From NCBI GenBank assembly GCA_003158295.1, contig PMIP01000098.1:1-33178 (forward strand): 33,178 nucleotides of DNA, in the 5' to 3' direction. The DNA is from Chloroflexota bacterium (GTDB taxonomy: Bacteria; Chloroflexota; Limnocylindria; Limnocylindrales; CSP1-4). The notes beneath the pieces were generated by a model. The model ran no database searches and was not told the DNA's origin. It saw only the letters and a program-made list of their open reading frames with translations. Position numbers and translations under genes: made by a program. Positions 25,080-33,178 of this stretch are shown here, piece by piece; position 1 is the first letter of the stretch; each line of letters begins with the position of its first letter.

Positions 25080-27089
25080 TTACGCGCGGCGGATCGGGCG
25101 GACCAACAGCCCGGCGAGACCGGCGGCAGCCGTCAGGATCCCGCAAATGGCGATGACGGGACGGAAGCCAACGAGCTGGGCGAGCGCTCCGCTGCTGACC
25201 ATGGCCACGGCCAGGACTCCGTTGACGACGGCCAGGCGGATCGCGACAACGCGCCCGAGCATCTCGTCCGGGGTGCGCTGCTGGAAGAGGGTCTGGCTCG
25301 GGATCACGAACGTGACGTTCGCCAGGCCGATCGCCAGCGCCAGGATCAGGGCGAGTGGCAGGTTCTGGGTCGCGGCCAGGGCCGTCATCGCCACGCCCAG
25401 CGCCGTGAACGCGGCGATGATGCTCGGCCCCTTGGGGATGCGCGTGGCCAGGCCGCCCAGGACGATGCCGCCGCCGAGCAGGCCCACGCCCATCGACATC
25501 TCGAAGAGGCCGTATGCGGTGGGCGCATCCGTACCGGCGAGCGCCAGAGAGGCGATGAGGAGCGGCGCGAGCGCGTCCAGGGCGCCTGTCCCTAACTCGG
25601 CCACGGCGGCCTGGACGGTGGTGGCGAAGAGCACGGTCTCGGAGCGAAGGAAGCGCCAGCCGGCCAGGAGGTCCGCGAGGATGGAGGCCGGCACGGACGT
25701 GGCCTCGCGGGCCAAGGCGGCGCCCGCCCCCGCGGCGGCCGACTCCCCCGCTCCCGCCGCGGCCGACTCCCTCGCGGCACCTTCCCGCCCGGCCCCTTCC
25801 CGCGCCCCCACGCCGCTCCGAACGAATGGCGGTATCGCAATGGCCGCGACCAGCGCCGCCGACGCCAGGTAGCTCGCCCCGTCCAGCCAGAACGCCAGCG
25901 CCAGCGAGGAGCCCAGGAACGCCACGAAGAGCCCGCCCAGGCCGTAGCCCACCAGGTCCGTGGCCGTATCCGCGACCCACATGGCCGAGTTGGCGGTCAG
26001 CAGATCCTCAGCCGGAACCACCCGCGGCAGCGCCGCCGCCCGGGCCGGCCGGAAGAACGACGAGACGGCCGCGAGCAGGAAGACCAGCGCCACCACCAGG
26101 CCCACGTGCACGCCGGACGCCACGGGGATGATCCCCACGATCGCCGCCCGCAGCAGGTCAGAACCCACCATCACGTGCTTGCGGTCCCAGCGATCCACCA
26201 GGGCCCCGGCCACCGGACCAACCAGGAAGCTCGGGACCGTCATCGCGGCGAAGACCAGGCCCAGCGCCAGCGGTGACGAGTCCGTGGCCCGTGCCACCAG
26301 GAAGACCAGCGCGACCTGGTGGATCCGATCCCCCAGCGAGCTGACCACCTGGCTCAGCCACATGGCGGAGAAGGCGCCGTTGCCGGCAAGCCGCACGTAC
26401 GGATGGCCGAGCGGCCCACGCACCGCCGCCTTCGCGGCCACTTCCGCCTCCGCGACCACTCCCGCGGACGGATACGTGGGCGCGTACGAAAGCGCGCTCG
26501 CCGGCGAGATGCGCTCCACGAGCTGCGCCGGGTAGAGGGCCGGGGATCGAACCGCGGCGGCGAAGACGAAGAAGGCCAGGCCGGCCCCCAGGAGCAGGTC
26601 ACCGAAGGAGGCGACCGACTGGATCATCGGGATCGGGATCGGAATCGGGATGATGTCGACGAGCGGTCCGCCGTGGGCGAAGAAGGCGGTGTCCACCGGT
26701 CCGGTCAGCAGCGTGTGGAAGCTCGAATGCACCGCGGTCGAGTCCAGTCCGGCGGCCCGCAGGCTGGGCTGCCAGACCGGCATCCAGCCTCCGTTGGCCA
26801 CGATGGCGATGCCGTTTGCCGCGGTCCCCAACGCGGCCGCGGCCATGCCGGGCAGGCTCCGGTTCGTCAGGAACATCGCGGTGAGCAGCACGTAGATAAC
26901 CAGGACGAACCACATCCGCAGGACATCCGGGATGTCGCCGGCGGCGAGCAAGCCGTCCAGCGCAAAGCGCGCAACCACGGCCGTAACCAGGGCGGGCAGG
27001 TAGCGGAGTCGAACGTCCGCGAAGTTGTCTATGCGCCCGCCGGCGAGCAAGCCCAGCCCAAGCCCCAGGAAGATGCCGAGGGTGGGCAC
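25080..27089 (-). CDS. DUF5317-like N-terminal domain fused to an MFS transporter
   Basis: Residues 1 to about 190 resemble DUF5317 (GLGLGLLAGGRIDNFADVRLRYLPALV...FLTNRSLPGMAAAALGTAANGIAIVANGGWMPV). The rest is MFS (FSAMWLSQVVSSLGDRIHQVALVFLV...GPVAGALVDRWDRKHVMVGSDLLRA). Confidence 0.88.
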   Translation of the reverse strand: MPTLGIFLGLGLGLLAGGRIDNFADVRLRYLPALVTAVVARFALDGLLAAGDIPDVLRMWFVLVIYVLLTAMFLTNRSLPGMAAAALGTAANGIAIVANGGWMPVWQPSLRAAGLDSTAVHSSFHTLLTGPVDTAFFAHGGPLVDIIPIPIPIPMIQSVASFGDLLLGAGLAFFVFAAAVRSPALYPAQLVERISPASALSYAPTYPSAGVVAEAEVAAKAAVRGPLGHPYVRLAGNGAFSAMWLSQVVSSLGDRIHQVALVFLVARATDSSPLALGLVFAAMTVPSFLVGPVAGALVDRWDRKHVMVGSDLLRAAIVGIIPVASGVHVGLVVALVFLLAAVSSFFRPARAAALPRVVPAEDLLTANSAMWVADTATDLVGYGLGGLFVAFLGSSLALAFWLDGASYLASAALVAAIAIPPFVRSGVGAREGAGREGAARESAAAGAGESAAAGAGAALAREATSVPASILADLLAGWRFLRSETVLFATTVQAAVAELGTGALDALAPLLIASLALAGTDAPTAYGLFEMSMGVGLLGGGIVLGGLATRIPKGPSIIAAFTALGVAMTALAATQNLPLALILALAIGLANVTFVIPSQTLFQQRTPDEMLGRVVAIRLAVVNGVLAVAMVSSGALAQLVGFRPVIAICGILTAAAGLAGLLVRPIRRA

Positions 27090-27092
27090 GGT

Positions 27093-28448
27093 TTAGGCGG
27101 CGCCCGGATTCCGGCCAGGCCCGGTCAGCGACCCCGCCTTCTGGCCTATCAGCGGCACGTCACGAACCTCATCGCCCCCCGAATCGGAGAGAGGTTGCGC
27201 CCATTTGGTCTTGAAGAAGGCGTCCACCACGTCCGGATCGAACTGGACCCCGCCGAACTTGCGCAGCTCAGCCAGGGCCTGTTCGGTCGTGAGGGGAATC
27301 ATGCGGTACGGGCGTGCCGCCGTCATCGCTTCAAAGGCGTCGGCCACGTGGAGGATGCGGGCCAGCAACGGGATCTCGTCCCCCACCATGCGGTCCGGAT
27401 AGCCCGATCCGTTGAACCACTCGTGGTGGTGGCGGATGATCGGCAGCTCCGCGGCCAGGTGCAGGACCGGAGCGACGATCTCCGCGCCCAGGGCCGGGTG
27501 CGAGTTCATGATCGCCCGCTCCTCGCGCGTGAGCCGCTCCTGCTTGAGCAGGACCGAGTCCGGCACGCCGATCTTGCCGATGTCATGGAGGAGGCCGCCC
27601 CACTCCAGGGCCTCCAGGTCGCTGTCGCTGACCTTCATGACCCGCCCGATGTCCATGGCGATGGACTGGACCCGGTGACTGTGGCCGCTGGTGAACGTGT
27701 CGCGCTTGTCAACCGCCTCCGCCAGGCTGCGCACGGTTTCGGTGAACATCTCTCGGACTTCCACGAACCGGCTGTACGCCAGGCGCGTCGTGTACAGCGG
27801 CACGGCGAAGAGCAGTACAGCCCACCAGCCGGCGACGATGTAGATCTGCGCCATCAGCCACGCCACGGGCGCCAGGGCGATGAGGCTGACATAGGCACCC
27901 GCGTCGGCTCGCAGGGGTGTCCAGAGGCGCTCTCCGGTTCGCAGCGACGTGAACACTGCGGACACCAGCGTGTTGAGAGAGAAGCAGACGACGGCGGCAA
28001 GGACTGTCGCGGCGAAGTCTACGGCCGCGTGAGACCGGAAGGGGATGCTCTGCAGGATAACGGCAGCCAGGATGGCCGGGCCGGCGATCACACAGTGGTT
28101 GGCGATCACTCCGTACCAGGGAACCTGCCCTTTTATCTCCCTCGCTTGGGTACTGCCGATGATGCCTACCCATGCAGCTGCCGCCGGGCCTCCCAGGCTC
28201 AGGGCCGCGACCAGCGGGGCGAACCCAACGTCGACCACGCCGCCGTCGAACATGCGAACGGCCAGAGAAGAGCCTACGAGCGAGATCCCGATCCAGAACA
28301 GCACACCCGCCGGGATTCCGGCGGGTGCGAGCCTGTCTACCGAGATCGGGGTCTGCAGAGGGCACAGCAAGACAGCGCCGACGAACAGTACCGCAGTCGC
28401 CAGCGCGACGAACGCGACCACTAGCCCCAACCGGCGGTTCATCGCCAC
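27093..28448 (-). CDS. membrane-anchored HD-GYP domain protein (putative c-di-GMP phosphodiesterase)
   Basis: TSGHSHRVQSIAMDIGR...LLHDIGKIGVPDSVL...RHHHEWFNGSGYPD...LLARILHVADAFEAMTAARPYR, preceded by multi-TM N-terminus. Confidence 0.95.
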   Translation of the reverse strand: MAMNRRLGLVVAFVALATAVLFVGAVLLCPLQTPISVDRLAPAGIPAGVLFWIGISLVGSSLAVRMFDGGVVDVGFAPLVAALSLGGPAAAAWVGIIGSTQAREIKGQVPWYGVIANHCVIAGPAILAAVILQSIPFRSHAAVDFAATVLAAVVCFSLNTLVSAVFTSLRTGERLWTPLRADAGAYVSLIALAPVAWLMAQIYIVAGWWAVLLFAVPLYTTRLAYSRFVEVREMFTETVRSLAEAVDKRDTFTSGHSHRVQSIAMDIGRVMKVSDSDLEALEWGGLLHDIGKIGVPDSVLLKQERLTREERAIMNSHPALGAEIVAPVLHLAAELPIIRHHHEWFNGSGYPDRMVGDEIPLLARILHVADAFEAMTAARPYRMIPLTTEQALAELRKFGGVQFDPDVVDAFFKTKWAQPLSDSGGDEVRDVPLIGQKAGSLTGPGRNPGAA

Positions 28449-28845: not shown

Positions 28846-28960
28846 GGAACTCGGCGGGTCACCCTCGATCGCTGACCGGCAGTGCTTCCGGAAGTCGAAC
28901 ACTATCGCTGGATCGCGACAGCCAATTCAGCGAAGCCATGAGCGACGCACTGCCGAGCGG

Positions 28961-29716
28961 TTACCCTCCCACCCACTCGTCACCGTCGAAGCGAGGATCC
29001 GACGGTGTCCTGCCCTTCAGGCAATCCCCAAGTTGTCGACGGACGTAGGCCATGCCAGAGACTTCGACCATCACTCTCGTGAGGTAGGCGTACCGGGCCG
29101 TCTCCGTCAGGACTTCCCTATGCGCGCGCCTTCGGTGCCCTCGGTCCCTCCGACGCAGCTCGCCTTTCGCCAACGCCTCGACGTACTCGTGTTGCTCTTC
29201 CTTCTCATCATAGGGCTCAGACCTCCCCTCAACTGCCGCGTGCGTAGCGGCAACCAAGTCCGCCAGAGTCTTGTATCTACAGCGAACAGCAGGTAAGAGG
29301 TCGTCGTAGATCGCGTTGATGGCCGCATCCATCTCGCGCCTGAACAGCTTCGCATACACCTCATGGAGGAAGGTGAGTTCAAAGGAGAGGCTACCCAGGT
29401 CGGGTGTATCCCATTGCCCATCGTTCATAGCCCGCCCAAGACTGAATCGGCTCTGGGTCAGCGCTGGCAGACCGAACGCCCATAAGGGCCCAGCAGACCA
29501 CGAGGGCGCCGGTGACAATCTCCAGTAGGCTGTCAGAGCAACTGCCGCGATCGTCAAGTTGATGACGTAGAGACCGTAGGTCGCGGGGACCTTGTGTATC
29601 TCAACTTCAAGTCCTTGGTACGTCCGAACGACCTGACTCAGGGTCAGGACCACGGTGACCGTGACGAGGAGCGCTAATGCGAGCGAGTACGGGAAGTACT
29701 CCGACAGGTCAGGCAC
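28961..29716 (-). CDS. membrane protein of unknown function (251 aa)
   Basis: Two predicted TM helices (SLALALLVTVTVVLTL and YGLYVINLTIAAVALTAYW) and a charged cytoplasmic C-terminal region. Overlaps the upstream gene end by 8 bp. Confidence 0.75.
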   Translation of the reverse strand: MPDLSEYFPYSLALALLVTVTVVLTLSQVVRTYQGLEVEIHKVPATYGLYVINLTIAAVALTAYWRLSPAPSWSAGPLWAFGLPALTQSRFSLGRAMNDGQWDTPDLGSLSFELTFLHEVYAKLFRREMDAAINAIYDDLLPAVRCRYKTLADLVAATHAAVEGRSEPYDEKEEQHEYVEALAKGELRRRDRGHRRRAHREVLTETARYAYLTRVMVEVSGMAYVRRQLGDCLKGRTPSDPRFDGDEWVGG

Positions 29717-30326
29717 CCGTCGGCATTTCCCGATTCGCTCGAGATGCCGTTCTAGACTCAGCAGAGAGCCATTCGCTGGCGGCGCGGACCCCCTCTGCCG
29801 TCGGCGAATAGAAGACTTGGCGACGCTGAGAATAGCGCCTAGCCCGTTTGGTCCTCGACAAGTGCGTCAGAAGAAGCGAGATGGAGAGACCCAACGCTAC
29901 CGCCGCCACGCTGTCCGCAACAACAGTGACAATCAAGACAACGTTGGCGTCCCAGTCGCGGGCCCACCCGTAGAAGAGCAGCCCCAGGAACGCAAGCGCG
30001 AGCATGGAGAACACGCCCGCCAAGGCCATGGCCAGCTCCTTCTGCCTGCGTCGATCGCGAAGCTGCTCGTTGAGTGACTCGAATTGCGGCGTCCCCTTGC
30101 GCACGTAGCCCCGCTCCTGTAGCCGCGCCAGTGCAGATCGTGCGTCTCCAGGAAGGAGCATCGCTTGGACCGAGACGCTCGCGAGGGTTTCCTGCTGCGA
30201 GGTCCACAGCGCCCGCAACACCCTGAGCTCATCGTTGCTAATCGCGGCGGAAGGAGAAGAGCCATCCGCGGGATGTTGCAGGATCATCGTTTCCCCCAAC
30301 CGAAGCCAATTGGCCGATCGCGGCAA
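29709..30326 (-). CDS. winged-helix-like protein containing a transmembrane hairpin
   Basis: ISNDELRVLRALWTSQQETLASVSVQAMLLPGDARSALARLQERGYVRKGTP resembles a wHTH; two TM helices follow; then RRQVFYSPTAEGVRAASEWLSAE resembles a wing and C-terminal helix. An internal start at ATG 30287 is possible. Confidence 0.75.
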   Translation of the reverse strand: MPRSANWLRLGETMILQHPADGSSPSAAISNDELRVLRALWTSQQETLASVSVQAMLLPGDARSALARLQERGYVRKGTPQFESLNEQLRDRRRQKELAMALAGVFSMLALAFLGLLFYGWARDWDANVVLIVTVVADSVAAVALGLSISLLLTHLSRTKRARRYSQRRQVFYSPTAEGVRAASEWLSAESRTASRANREMPTGA

Positions 30327-30556
30327 GATTACCGCTTTTGCGGCCGCGCGCGTGTGGCATCGGAGCCATTCTTCGCTTCCTGATCGACCATGCCGGCTCC
30401 CGATCTGCTCATCGCGTTTGTCCGAGGCCGCGAGCGGCAGTCGCCGATTCCCCGCTTCTTGCGCCTTGGCATGGTCGGTGATTGCACGACCCTTCTAAGC
30501 TTCAGGACAGTGGCGACACGTTTCTTTGAGCGCCGCTTCTAGGGGGAGTCGCTCCA

Positions 30557-32275
30557 ATGCCCGACTCGTACATGGATGCCCGCACGCAAGGCATAGGTGA
30601 GCTCATCGAACAGCGTCAGCTGTTCAGGGTGCCCGACCATCAACGGGACTTCGCGTGGGATCACGACGACGAGGTGGCGACGTTCCTAGACGATGTCGAA
30701 CGAGCCCTGCACGATGGCGCGCCTGAGTACTTCCTCGGCCTGATCGTTCTTGTGAAACCTCGGGAATCCAACCCATGGGAAGTGCTGGACGGTCAACAGA
30801 GGCTCGCCACAACGACCATGGTCTACGCCGGCATTCGGGAGTGGCTGCATGCCGCCGGGTTGTCCAGCGAAGGGATCAAGGTGCAGGATCGCTTCATTGG
30901 CATGAGCGCGCTTGGCGAACGGGAAGACCGTGCCCGACTCACTCTCAACGTCAACGACCGAAAGGCCTTTCACGACCTCGTCGTCAACCGCTGCAACGAG
31001 GAGACTCTCAGGCTGCGCCGGGACGCGGCGGGCCGCAACTCTTCGGTTCGACGGCTGATTGAGGCGGCGCTGACCTGTCGGGAGAAGGTGGCCAAGTTCG
31101 CTGCCGACGCGGGGCCCGAGCCGCCCCAGCAGGCACAGTCTCTCTACGCACTCGCCAACTACCTGCGAGACAAGACGACCGTTGTCGTGATGAACGTTGC
31201 GTCAACTGCTAACGCCTACGTGATATTCGAATCGCTCAACGACCGAGGTCTCGATCTGTCGGTGCTCGATCTAGTGAAGAACCATCTGTTTGGTCGGGCA
31301 GGCGGCCACCTCGCCGAGGTTCAAGCGAACTGGATGAGAATGGCCGCCAACCTTGGCGACAGACCCGCAGACGACTTCTTGAAGGTTTTCTGGACGTCGA
31401 AGTACGGGCGAATTCAGCGCGGGCGGCTATTCGAGGAGTGGCGTCTCAAGTACGGCACAACTGACGTGGTTGCCTTGTCAGACGAGCTGGCCACGAGCGC
31501 CGACCTATTCTCAGCGCTCGACGTCCCTGACCACGAGATCTGGTCCGGGCACTCCAACCAAACCAGGCGGTTAGTGAGGGCGTTGGGTCTCCTCGGCAAT
31601 CAGCAGGTCCGCCCGGTGATGCTAGCGGCCGTCCGTTCGTACACCCCCGAACGAATGGAACGCCTGCTGGAGCATTTGGCGACGCTGACCGTTCGCTATC
31701 AGACTGTGGGAAAGGGGCGGACGGGGCTCTTGGAAATCGCATGCGCCAGGCTTGCTCGCGGAATCGCAGACGGCAGTCTGAAGTCCCCCGAGCGAGTGTG
31801 GTCTGAGATTTCTCCTCTCGTCCAGGGCGACGACGAATTCCGACAGGCCTTCCGTCGCTACACGGAGAGCAATGCATCCAGGGCCCGCTACATCTTGACT
31901 GAGCTTGAGCGCACGGCTTACCGCGTCGCCAATGGCAGTGACCGCGACGTGGCCCCAACTGAGGACCTCAGCCTTGAACACATCCTGCCGCGCAACCCAG
32001 GCTCTGAATGGTCAGCGGAGATGCAAGCCGACCGGGACCTTCGCGAGTTAGCTTCGAGGATCGGCAACATGTGTCTCCTCGGAGAAGACACGAACCGACA
32101 ACTGGGCAGCAAGGGTTTTGCCTCCAAGCGCGAGAGGCTCAAGGCTTCTGGCGAGCTTGTGCTCACGGCAGAAGTAGCTGCCTTTCAGCAGTGGGATCGA
32201 ACAGCGATCGAAACCAGACAGGAGCGCATGGCCGATTTGGCGGTCAAGACCTGGCCTCTGCCATCACGCAGCTGA
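30557..32275 (+). CDS. GmrSD-like DUF262/DUF1524 (HNH) restriction-type protein
   Basis: DUF262: FRVPDHQRDFAWDHDDEVATFLDDVERAL...YFLGLIVLV...WEVLDGQQRLATTTM...FESLNDRGLDLSVLDLVKNHLF. DUF1524: LSLEHILPRNPGSEW...RIGNMCLLGEDTNRQLGSKGFASKRERLKAS. Confidence 0.93.
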   Translation: MPDSYMDARTQGIGELIEQRQLFRVPDHQRDFAWDHDDEVATFLDDVERALHDGAPEYFLGLIVLVKPRESNPWEVLDGQQRLATTTMVYAGIREWLHAAGLSSEGIKVQDRFIGMSALGEREDRARLTLNVNDRKAFHDLVVNRCNEETLRLRRDAAGRNSSVRRLIEAALTCREKVAKFAADAGPEPPQQAQSLYALANYLRDKTTVVVMNVASTANAYVIFESLNDRGLDLSVLDLVKNHLFGRAGGHLAEVQANWMRMAANLGDRPADDFLKVFWTSKYGRIQRGRLFEEWRLKYGTTDVVALSDELATSADLFSALDVPDHEIWSGHSNQTRRLVRALGLLGNQQVRPVMLAAVRSYTPERMERLLEHLATLTVRYQTVGKGRTGLLEIACARLARGIADGSLKSPERVWSEISPLVQGDDEFRQAFRRYTESNASRARYILTELERTAYRVANGSDRDVAPTEDLSLEHILPRNPGSEWSAEMQADRDLRELASRIGNMCLLGEDTNRQLGSKGFASKRERLKASGELVLTAEVAAFQQWDRTAIETRQERMADLAVKTWPLPSRS

Positions 32276-32381
32276 CGAGGACGTTTGCGATCCGCCGGGT
32301 GCGGTCGTGGCGTGTCCAGGCACTACGCTCCCGCGGACCTACTCGGGCTAACTTCAGATCAGACGCTGGGCCCGAATCCCC

Positions 32382-32585
32382 CTACGCCTCGTACTCGAAG
32401 CTCAGCTTCATCTGGACCCGGTACTCCACGATCTCGTCGTTCTCGACTCGGGCCGTGGACTGGACCACCTCTATGGTGCGGATGTTCCGCACCGTCTTGG
32501 AGGCGATCGCGACGGCCTGGCGGGCCGCGTCGCTCCACGAGTGCTGGCTGGTTCCGACCATCTCCCGGACGATTAGCACGCCCAT
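32382..32585 (-). CDS. dodecin family flavin-binding protein
   Basis: 67 aa: VREMVGTSQHSWSDAARQAVAIASKTVRNIRTIEVVQSTARVENDEIVEYRVQMKLSFEYE matches the dodecin pattern along its length. Confidence 0.95.
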   Translation of the reverse strand: MGVLIVREMVGTSQHSWSDAARQAVAIASKTVRNIRTIEVVQSTARVENDEIVEYRVQMKLSFEYEA

Positions 32586-32770: not shown

Positions 32771-33178
32771 CTACGGCGCGAAGTAGCCGGTCACGTCGAA
32801 GATCACCTGGGCGGTCGGACCCAGGGTCGCGGCGGCATAGGTGACCGATAGCGTCCCTCCGGTACCGAGAGCCACCGTGACCGCGTTGGCTCGGTCGTCG
32901 GCGAGTGGGAAGTTGAGAGTCGAGCTGGTCGGGTTGTTAGCCGCCACAGGACCAACGGAGAGGAACCCGGCGCTGGATTGCTGAGTGACCGTGAGGTTGC
33001 CGGTTACTGCAGTGGCGCCGGAGGCGACTCCACCATGCCCCGTCACCGCGAAGCTCTGGGCCACATGGGAGCCAAAGATGCCTAGGCCACCGGTGTGATC
33101 GCGAGTGTCGAGGATGCGGGCCGGAGTGAGTGGTACGTATGCGGCGCCGGTCAGATCGGGCGTGAAGTAGCCGGTGAC
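32771..33178 (-). CDS. modular secreted/surface protein with ARILDTR...VIFDVTGYF repeats (N-terminus beyond right edge)
   Basis: The open frame runs to the window edge: VTGYFTPDLTGAAYVPLTPARILDTRDHTGGLG...PTAQVIFDVTGYFAP-stop. One full module plus the end of the preceding one. Confidence 0.85.
   Translation of the reverse strand, partial: VTGYFTPDLTGAAYVPLTPARILDTRDHTGGLGIFGSHVAQSFAVTGHGGVASGATAVTGNLTVTQQSSAGFLSVGPVAANNPTSSTLNFPLADDRANAVTVALGTGGTLSVTYAAATLGPTAQVIFDVTGYFAP

What the first reader, a model, noticed from the sequence alone, without database searches (positions are those of the whole stretch)
28961..32275. Candidate undescribed defence-like module: GmrSD-like nuclease divergent from a two-gene membrane operon
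A fused DUF262/DUF1524 protein (30557-32275, intact DGQQR and HNH-like EHILP...N motifs) is transcribed divergently from an operon (29709-30326 and 28961-29716, 8-bp overlap) encoding a wHTH/TM protein and a second TM protein. By eye the block is less GC-rich than its neighbours and interrupts housekeeping genes. GmrSD-type proteins are established modification-dependent restriction enzymes; their association with a membrane regulator pair is inference and is not a standard partnership I recognise. About 230 bp separates the divergent starts, enough for shared regulation.
Basis: partly seen in the sequence, partly recalled or inferred. Interest (0 to 1): 0.7.

Follow-up and report, generated by a model that had tools for sequence, protein, structure and literature searches.

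The report
GmrSD-like restriction enzyme beside orphan genes
A bacterium from an uncultured lineage carries, exactly where its relatives keep a large regulatory gene, a known type of single-protein phage-defence enzyme next to two unrecognised membrane-protein genes; nothing shows that these three genes form a new defence system.

Summary
The three ORFs are real and lie where stated. The + strand protein is a complete GmrSD-like enzyme: DUF262 + DUF1524, all catalytic motifs intact. Its best PADLOC match is HEC-06 (E = 2.4e-160), a single-gene defence type that the literature reports to act alone. So the nuclease is not undescribed. The two divergent membrane genes (P2, P3) match no curated family and have no detected relative in 60 relatives, 400 phylum genomes, plasmids, phages or viral contigs. 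None lies beside about 100 fetched GmrSD relatives, and a crude scan of 82 of these found no comparable membrane pair.

Two further results. (1) The block (28847-32374) is a clean gene replacement: 18 of 20 genus-mates carry a 1,148-aa BTAD/P-loop regulator, in nine of them shown intact at this site. This genome lacks it; flanks are 91-94% identical up to both edges. (2) P2 looks like a winged-helix DNA-binding protein with a transmembrane hairpin inserted in the wing. Removing the hairpin in silico restores winged-helix matches that eight shuffled controls lack, but this rests on one sequence.

Most likely: a horizontally acquired modification-dependent restriction enzyme plus an independent or regulatory membrane pair.

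The parts
30557..32275 (+). GmrSD-like (DUF262 + DUF1524) restriction enzyme, HEC-06 type, 572 aa
   Evidence: PF03235 2.5e-30, PF07510 9.4e-23; PADLOC HEC-06 2.4e-160; QR 29-30, DGQQR 78-82, F224xxxN228, H475, N504, N513 intact; GGGGGAG upstream of the ATG
29709..30326 (-). P2: predicted membrane-anchored winged-helix protein (likely start ATG 30287, 192 aa); two TM helices (about residues 96-158) appear inserted in the wing
   Evidence: Hydropathy; wHTH matches appear on excising residues 81-167 and are lost with shuffled C-termini; single-sequence AF2 mean pLDDT 66; no homologue found
28961..29716 (-). P3: orphan membrane protein, two N-terminal TM segments and a cytosolic helical, charged tail; start overlaps the stop of P2 (GTGCCTGA), implying translational coupling
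   Evidence: no homologue in any collection searched; AF2 uninformative (pLDDT 41)
30327..30556 (.). Divergent intergenic region; no consensus sigma-70 promoter and no palindrome beyond chance
28847..32374 (.). Acquired block that replaces a 1,148-aa BTAD/P-loop regulator gene conserved in the genus; no integrase, tRNA or terminal repeats
   Evidence: Flanks 91% (left) and 94% (right) identical to G012 up to the edges, nothing shared between them; no such block in 106 other family genomes; repeats and tRNA scans
27093..28448 (-). Left conserved flank: HD-GYP-type (HD_5) protein
32382..32585 (-). Right conserved flank: dodecin

Best explanation
The block is a horizontally acquired cargo of one complete defence gene plus a separate two-gene membrane operon, swapped in for a resident regulator gene. 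The GmrSD-like protein most likely acts alone. Its DUF262 domain senses a modified base in incoming DNA and hydrolyses NTP through DGQQR, which releases the C-terminal His-Me/HNH domain to cut that DNA (inferred from HEC-06, BrxU and GmrSD). P2 is most likely a membrane-anchored winged-helix regulator of its own operon and possibly of the divergent nuclease promoter; P3 is its translationally coupled membrane partner (inferred). Shown here: domains, motifs, gene order, gene replacement, absence of recurrent linkage. Not shown: nuclease activity, phage protection, DNA binding by P2, any interaction.
For: HEC-06 profile E = 2.4e-160 over residues 6-568, ahead of Orf5 (3e-116), SspE (1e-18) and mREase_IV (7e-20). 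Both Pfam domains well above cut-off. Motifs whose mutation abolishes TgvAB defence are intact. HEC-06 reported to act independently and to be antiviral (PMC11411939; PMC12988326). Relatives sit in varied contexts, mostly without membrane neighbours. P2/P3 absent from all searched genomes; P3 also absent from 50 carriers of HEC-06-like genes. Block absent from 106 other family genomes, replacing a gene kept by 18 of 20 genus-mates.
Against: Divergent arrangement with a DNA-binding protein next to a nuclease is typical of local regulation, so P2 could belong to the system. All three genes sit in one block with similar G+C and arrived or were kept together. P2/P3 may have relatives in metagenomes, which were not searchable here, and searches began from single sequences, so remote relatives could be missed.
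Confidence: 0.75

Rival explanations
1. A true three-gene module: P2/P3 at the membrane sense infection (for example DNA entry or membrane stress) and de-repress or license the GmrSD-like nuclease.
For: Divergent arrangement over 230 bp, translational coupling of P2-P3, apparent wHTH in P2 with TM anchor; all in one replaced block.
Against: No second instance in any collection; the closest nuclease relatives lack the pair; HEC-06 proteins are reported to act without partners; no palindrome beyond chance in the intergenic region.
Confidence: 0.15
2. A phosphorothioate-dependent nuclease like DndI or SspE, licensed by dnd/ssp modification genes elsewhere in the genome.
For: The best solved relative of the profile is DndI (9JFL, E = 1.8e-52) and the domain order is the same.
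Against: The PT-sensing tyrosine (Y25 of DndI) is histidine (H28) here and in the nearest relative L039 and in L012. No modification genes in or beside the block. SspE profiles score far lower than HEC-06.
Confidence: 0.05
3. Assembly artefact: a foreign fragment joined into the contig of what looks like a metagenome-assembled genome.
For: The genome is a fragmented assembly (101 contigs, about 85% complete); the block is unique to it and has lower G+C.
Against: Both flanks continue at 91-94% identity to G012 right up to the edges, and the native gene is missing from the whole assembly; a chimera would need two precise joins replacing one gene.
Confidence: 0.04

Closest known systems
HEC-06 (Hma-embedded candidate; single-gene GmrSD-like defence protein)
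   Same: Full-length profile match (E = 2.4e-160, 563 of 572 residues), domain order and motifs
   Different: Not embedded in an Hma cluster here; placed divergently from two orphan membrane genes
GmrSD / Eco94GmrSD and BrxU (type IV restriction enzymes)
   Same: DUF262 + DUF1524 in one chain; QR, DGQQR, FxxxN and His-Me residues
   Different: Low sequence similarity; the only possible BrxU structure match (7p9k, a DUF262 protein) is reached at E = 0.007 with the profile; substrate unknown
DndI and SspE (phosphorothioate-sensing DUF262/DUF1524 nickases)
   Same: Domain order; DndI is the closest solved relative (9JFL)
   Different: PT-sensing tyrosine replaced by His28; no modification genes alongside
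Membrane-bound one-component regulators (ToxR, CadC)
   Same: For P2: a winged-helix domain on a membrane-anchored protein, by analogy only
   Different: P2's TM helices appear inserted inside the wing, not C-terminal; no sequence relation shown

Membership tests
HEC-06 | Full-length match to the PADLOC HEC-06 profiles, ahead of other DUF262/DUF1524 types | tested here: met
   PDLC04155 E = 2.4e-160; next non-HEC-06 type Orf5 3.2e-116
HEC-06 | Antiphage activity as a single gene | not testable with these tools
   Reported for other HEC-06 members; not tested for this protein
GmrSD family | DUF262 (GmrSD_N) and DUF1524 (GmrSD_C) domains above curated cut-offs | tested here: met
   106.5 and 81.1 bits against cut-offs of 33.2 and 23
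GmrSD family | QR, DGQQR and FxxxN motifs; His-Me residues H, N, N | tested here: met
   Q29 R30, 78-82, F224/N228, H475, N504, N513, conserved in about 100 relatives
GmrSD family | Modification-dependent DNA cleavage | not testable with these tools
   Needs biochemistry
DndI/SspE phosphorothioate-sensing nucleases | PT-sensing tyrosine in the P-x-Y-Q-R patch | tested here: not met
   PDHQR: His28 at the DndI Y25 position
DndI/SspE phosphorothioate-sensing nucleases | Linked dnd or ssp modification genes | tested here: inconclusive
   None in the block or among the neighbouring genes examined; rest of the genome not searched
Winged-helix regulator (P2) | Significant match to a curated wHTH family | tested here: inconclusive
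   Whole P2 below all cut-offs; hairpin-excised sequence HTH_27 22.0 against a cut-off of 22.2, not seen in 8 shuffled controls
Recurrent three-gene module | Co-occurrence of the nuclease with P2/P3 in other genomes | tested here: not met

The most novel reading that the evidence does not exclude
P2 is a new kind of membrane-embedded transcription factor, with a transmembrane hairpin inserted in the wing of a winged helix. With P3 it senses a membrane event during infection and controls a HEC-06 nuclease, making a membrane-gated type IV restriction system.
Probability: 0.1. Interest if true: 0.6.

Novelty: new member of a known kind. Interest (0 to 1): 0.27.

Why it matters
As it stands it adds a divergent HEC-06 member in a poorly studied uncultured lineage, and a clean case of a defence gene replacing a conserved regulator gene between two fixed core genes. 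If P2's architecture were real and recurrent, it would be an unusual way to couple membrane state to DNA binding, next to a restriction enzyme whose control is unknown.

Tried and rejected
P3 hits in the phylum: the best two are frames antisense to a gene that reads as a membrane pyrophosphatase, the rest are compositionally biased frames; rejected as chance. P2 hits: AsnC/Lrp-like wHTH segments or unrelated TM stretches; rejected as homologues. AF2 of P3 (pLDDT 41) and a fold search with the P2 model (no match at E below 1) gave nothing. Intergenic palindromes: best one equalled in 197 of 500 shuffles. Terminal repeats at the block edges: none convincing. A genome-collection scan and a viral scan with P3, and a viral scan with P2, found no relative. 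Phosphorothioate-type function rejected mainly on His28.

Full report
Observation. The three ORFs, their strands, the 8-bp overlap and the 230-bp divergent spacer are as reported. In 500 mononucleotide shuffles of the block no set of frames was as long. Codon-position GC is typical of coding sequence in all three (0.64-0.66, 0.45-0.52, 0.71-0.73). The nuclease ATG is preceded by GGGGGAG. P2 probably starts at ATG 30287, which has GGGGG upstream, not at the TTG at 30326. P3's GTG overlaps the P2 stop as GTGCCTGA, so the two are probably translationally coupled. G+C drops to 60-63% from 64-72% in neighbours.

The nuclease. Pfam GmrSD_N and GmrSD_C both score far above cut-off. The best PADLOC profile is HEC-06, E = 2.4e-160 over residues 6-568; Orf5 profiles follow at 3e-116, while SspE and mREase_IV are near 1e-19. 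Q29-R30, D78GQQR82, F224xxxN228, H475, N504 and N513 are all present and nearly invariant among about 100 relatives. In TgvAB, mutations designed to disrupt the NTPase (DUF262) or nuclease (His, Asn) functions remove phage defence (PMC11411939). [quoted passage not shown] PMC12988326 says HEC-06 has shown antiviral activity. The nearest solved relative is DndI, 9JFL, a phosphorothioate-sensing nickase (PMC11662687). Its sensing residue Y25 aligns with His28 here; His is also found in the nearest relative L039 and in L012, and the position is Phe or Tyr in most others. Phosphorothioate sensing is therefore unlikely, though not excluded.

The membrane genes. P2 and P3 match nothing above cut-off in Pfam, PADLOC, PHROGs or NCBIfam. 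No convincing homologue was found in 60 relatives, 400 phylum genomes, plasmids, phages or viral contigs, nor for P3 in the 84,980-species collection (a single-sequence scan that reaches only close relatives). The weak hits were checked and are antisense or compositionally biased frames, or generic wHTH/TM stretches.

P2 architecture. Residues 28-77 resemble a helix-turn-helix domain (IclR-type, sub-threshold). Two TM helices follow (about 96-158), then RRQVFYSPTAEGVRAASEWL, which reads like the second wing strand and following helix of MarR/BlaI-type proteins. When the stretch between is removed in silico, HTH_27 (E = 2e-4) and Penicillinase_R (8e-4) match across the joint; with eight shuffled C-terminal segments neither appears. 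This supports a winged helix with a TM hairpin inserted in its wing. It remains one sequence, just under the curated cut-offs. The single-sequence AF2 model shows two long helices flanked by shorter ones at moderate confidence and does not resolve a wing.

Linkage. Profiles and tblastn fetched about 100 loci with HEC-06-like genes from many phyla. No ORF in them resembles P2 or P3. In 83 loci with enough upstream DNA, the window itself included, only the window has a divergent TM gene followed by another TM gene (a crude gene caller, so this is an indication). P3 is absent from 50 of the carrier genomes (the search had no positive control among those genomes). The closest nuclease relative, L039 at 43% identity, has unrelated neighbours.

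The site. In genus-mates the HD-GYP-type gene and dodecin gene flank a 1,148-aa gene with BTAD, Trans_reg_C-like and P-loop (AAA) segments. It is present in 18 of 20 genus-mates; of the other two, one gave no match in a fragmented assembly and the other has only distant paralogues. In nine the order HD-GYP, regulator, dodecin is seen on one contig. It is absent from this genome (G012 in the latter is the positive control). Homology to G012 runs at 91% up to window 28846, about 10 bp past the regulator's stop, and resumes at 32375 at 94%. Nothing between is shared. The 3.5-kb block therefore replaced the regulator gene cleanly. No such block occurs in 106 other family genomes. No integrase, tRNA or flanking repeat marks the edges, so recombination through the conserved flanks is the simplest route (inference). 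The native regulator itself has third-position GC of 0.725, so low G+C alone is weak evidence of import; the replacement is the strong evidence.

Judgement. The nuclease is a new member of a described single-gene defence type. The membrane pair is real but orphan, and its link to the nuclease is not supported by comparative evidence. Local regulation by P2 is plausible from its position and apparent wHTH, but untested. Interest is modest: a good gene-replacement example and one curious protein architecture that needs relatives before it can be believed.

Noticed in passing
window 28847-32374 versus L130-L138: The site between the HD-GYP-type gene and dodecin varies in the genus: the regulator is replaced here, and G003 (L134) and G017 (L137) have longer intervals between it and dodecin; L134 holds a sigma-factor-like gene pair and a larger secreted-type protein there.
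   Followed up: partly
window 29709-30326: P2 appears to be a winged helix with a transmembrane hairpin inserted in the wing; no relative found.
   Followed up: partly
window 32771-33178 and beyond the window (L141): End of a long protein made of repeats of about 400 bp ending in VTGYFxP, with several copies also in G012 (L130 8805-9565).
   Followed up: no
window 25080-27089: Fusion of a DUF5317 membrane domain with an MFS_3 transporter domain in one 669-aa protein.
   Followed up: no
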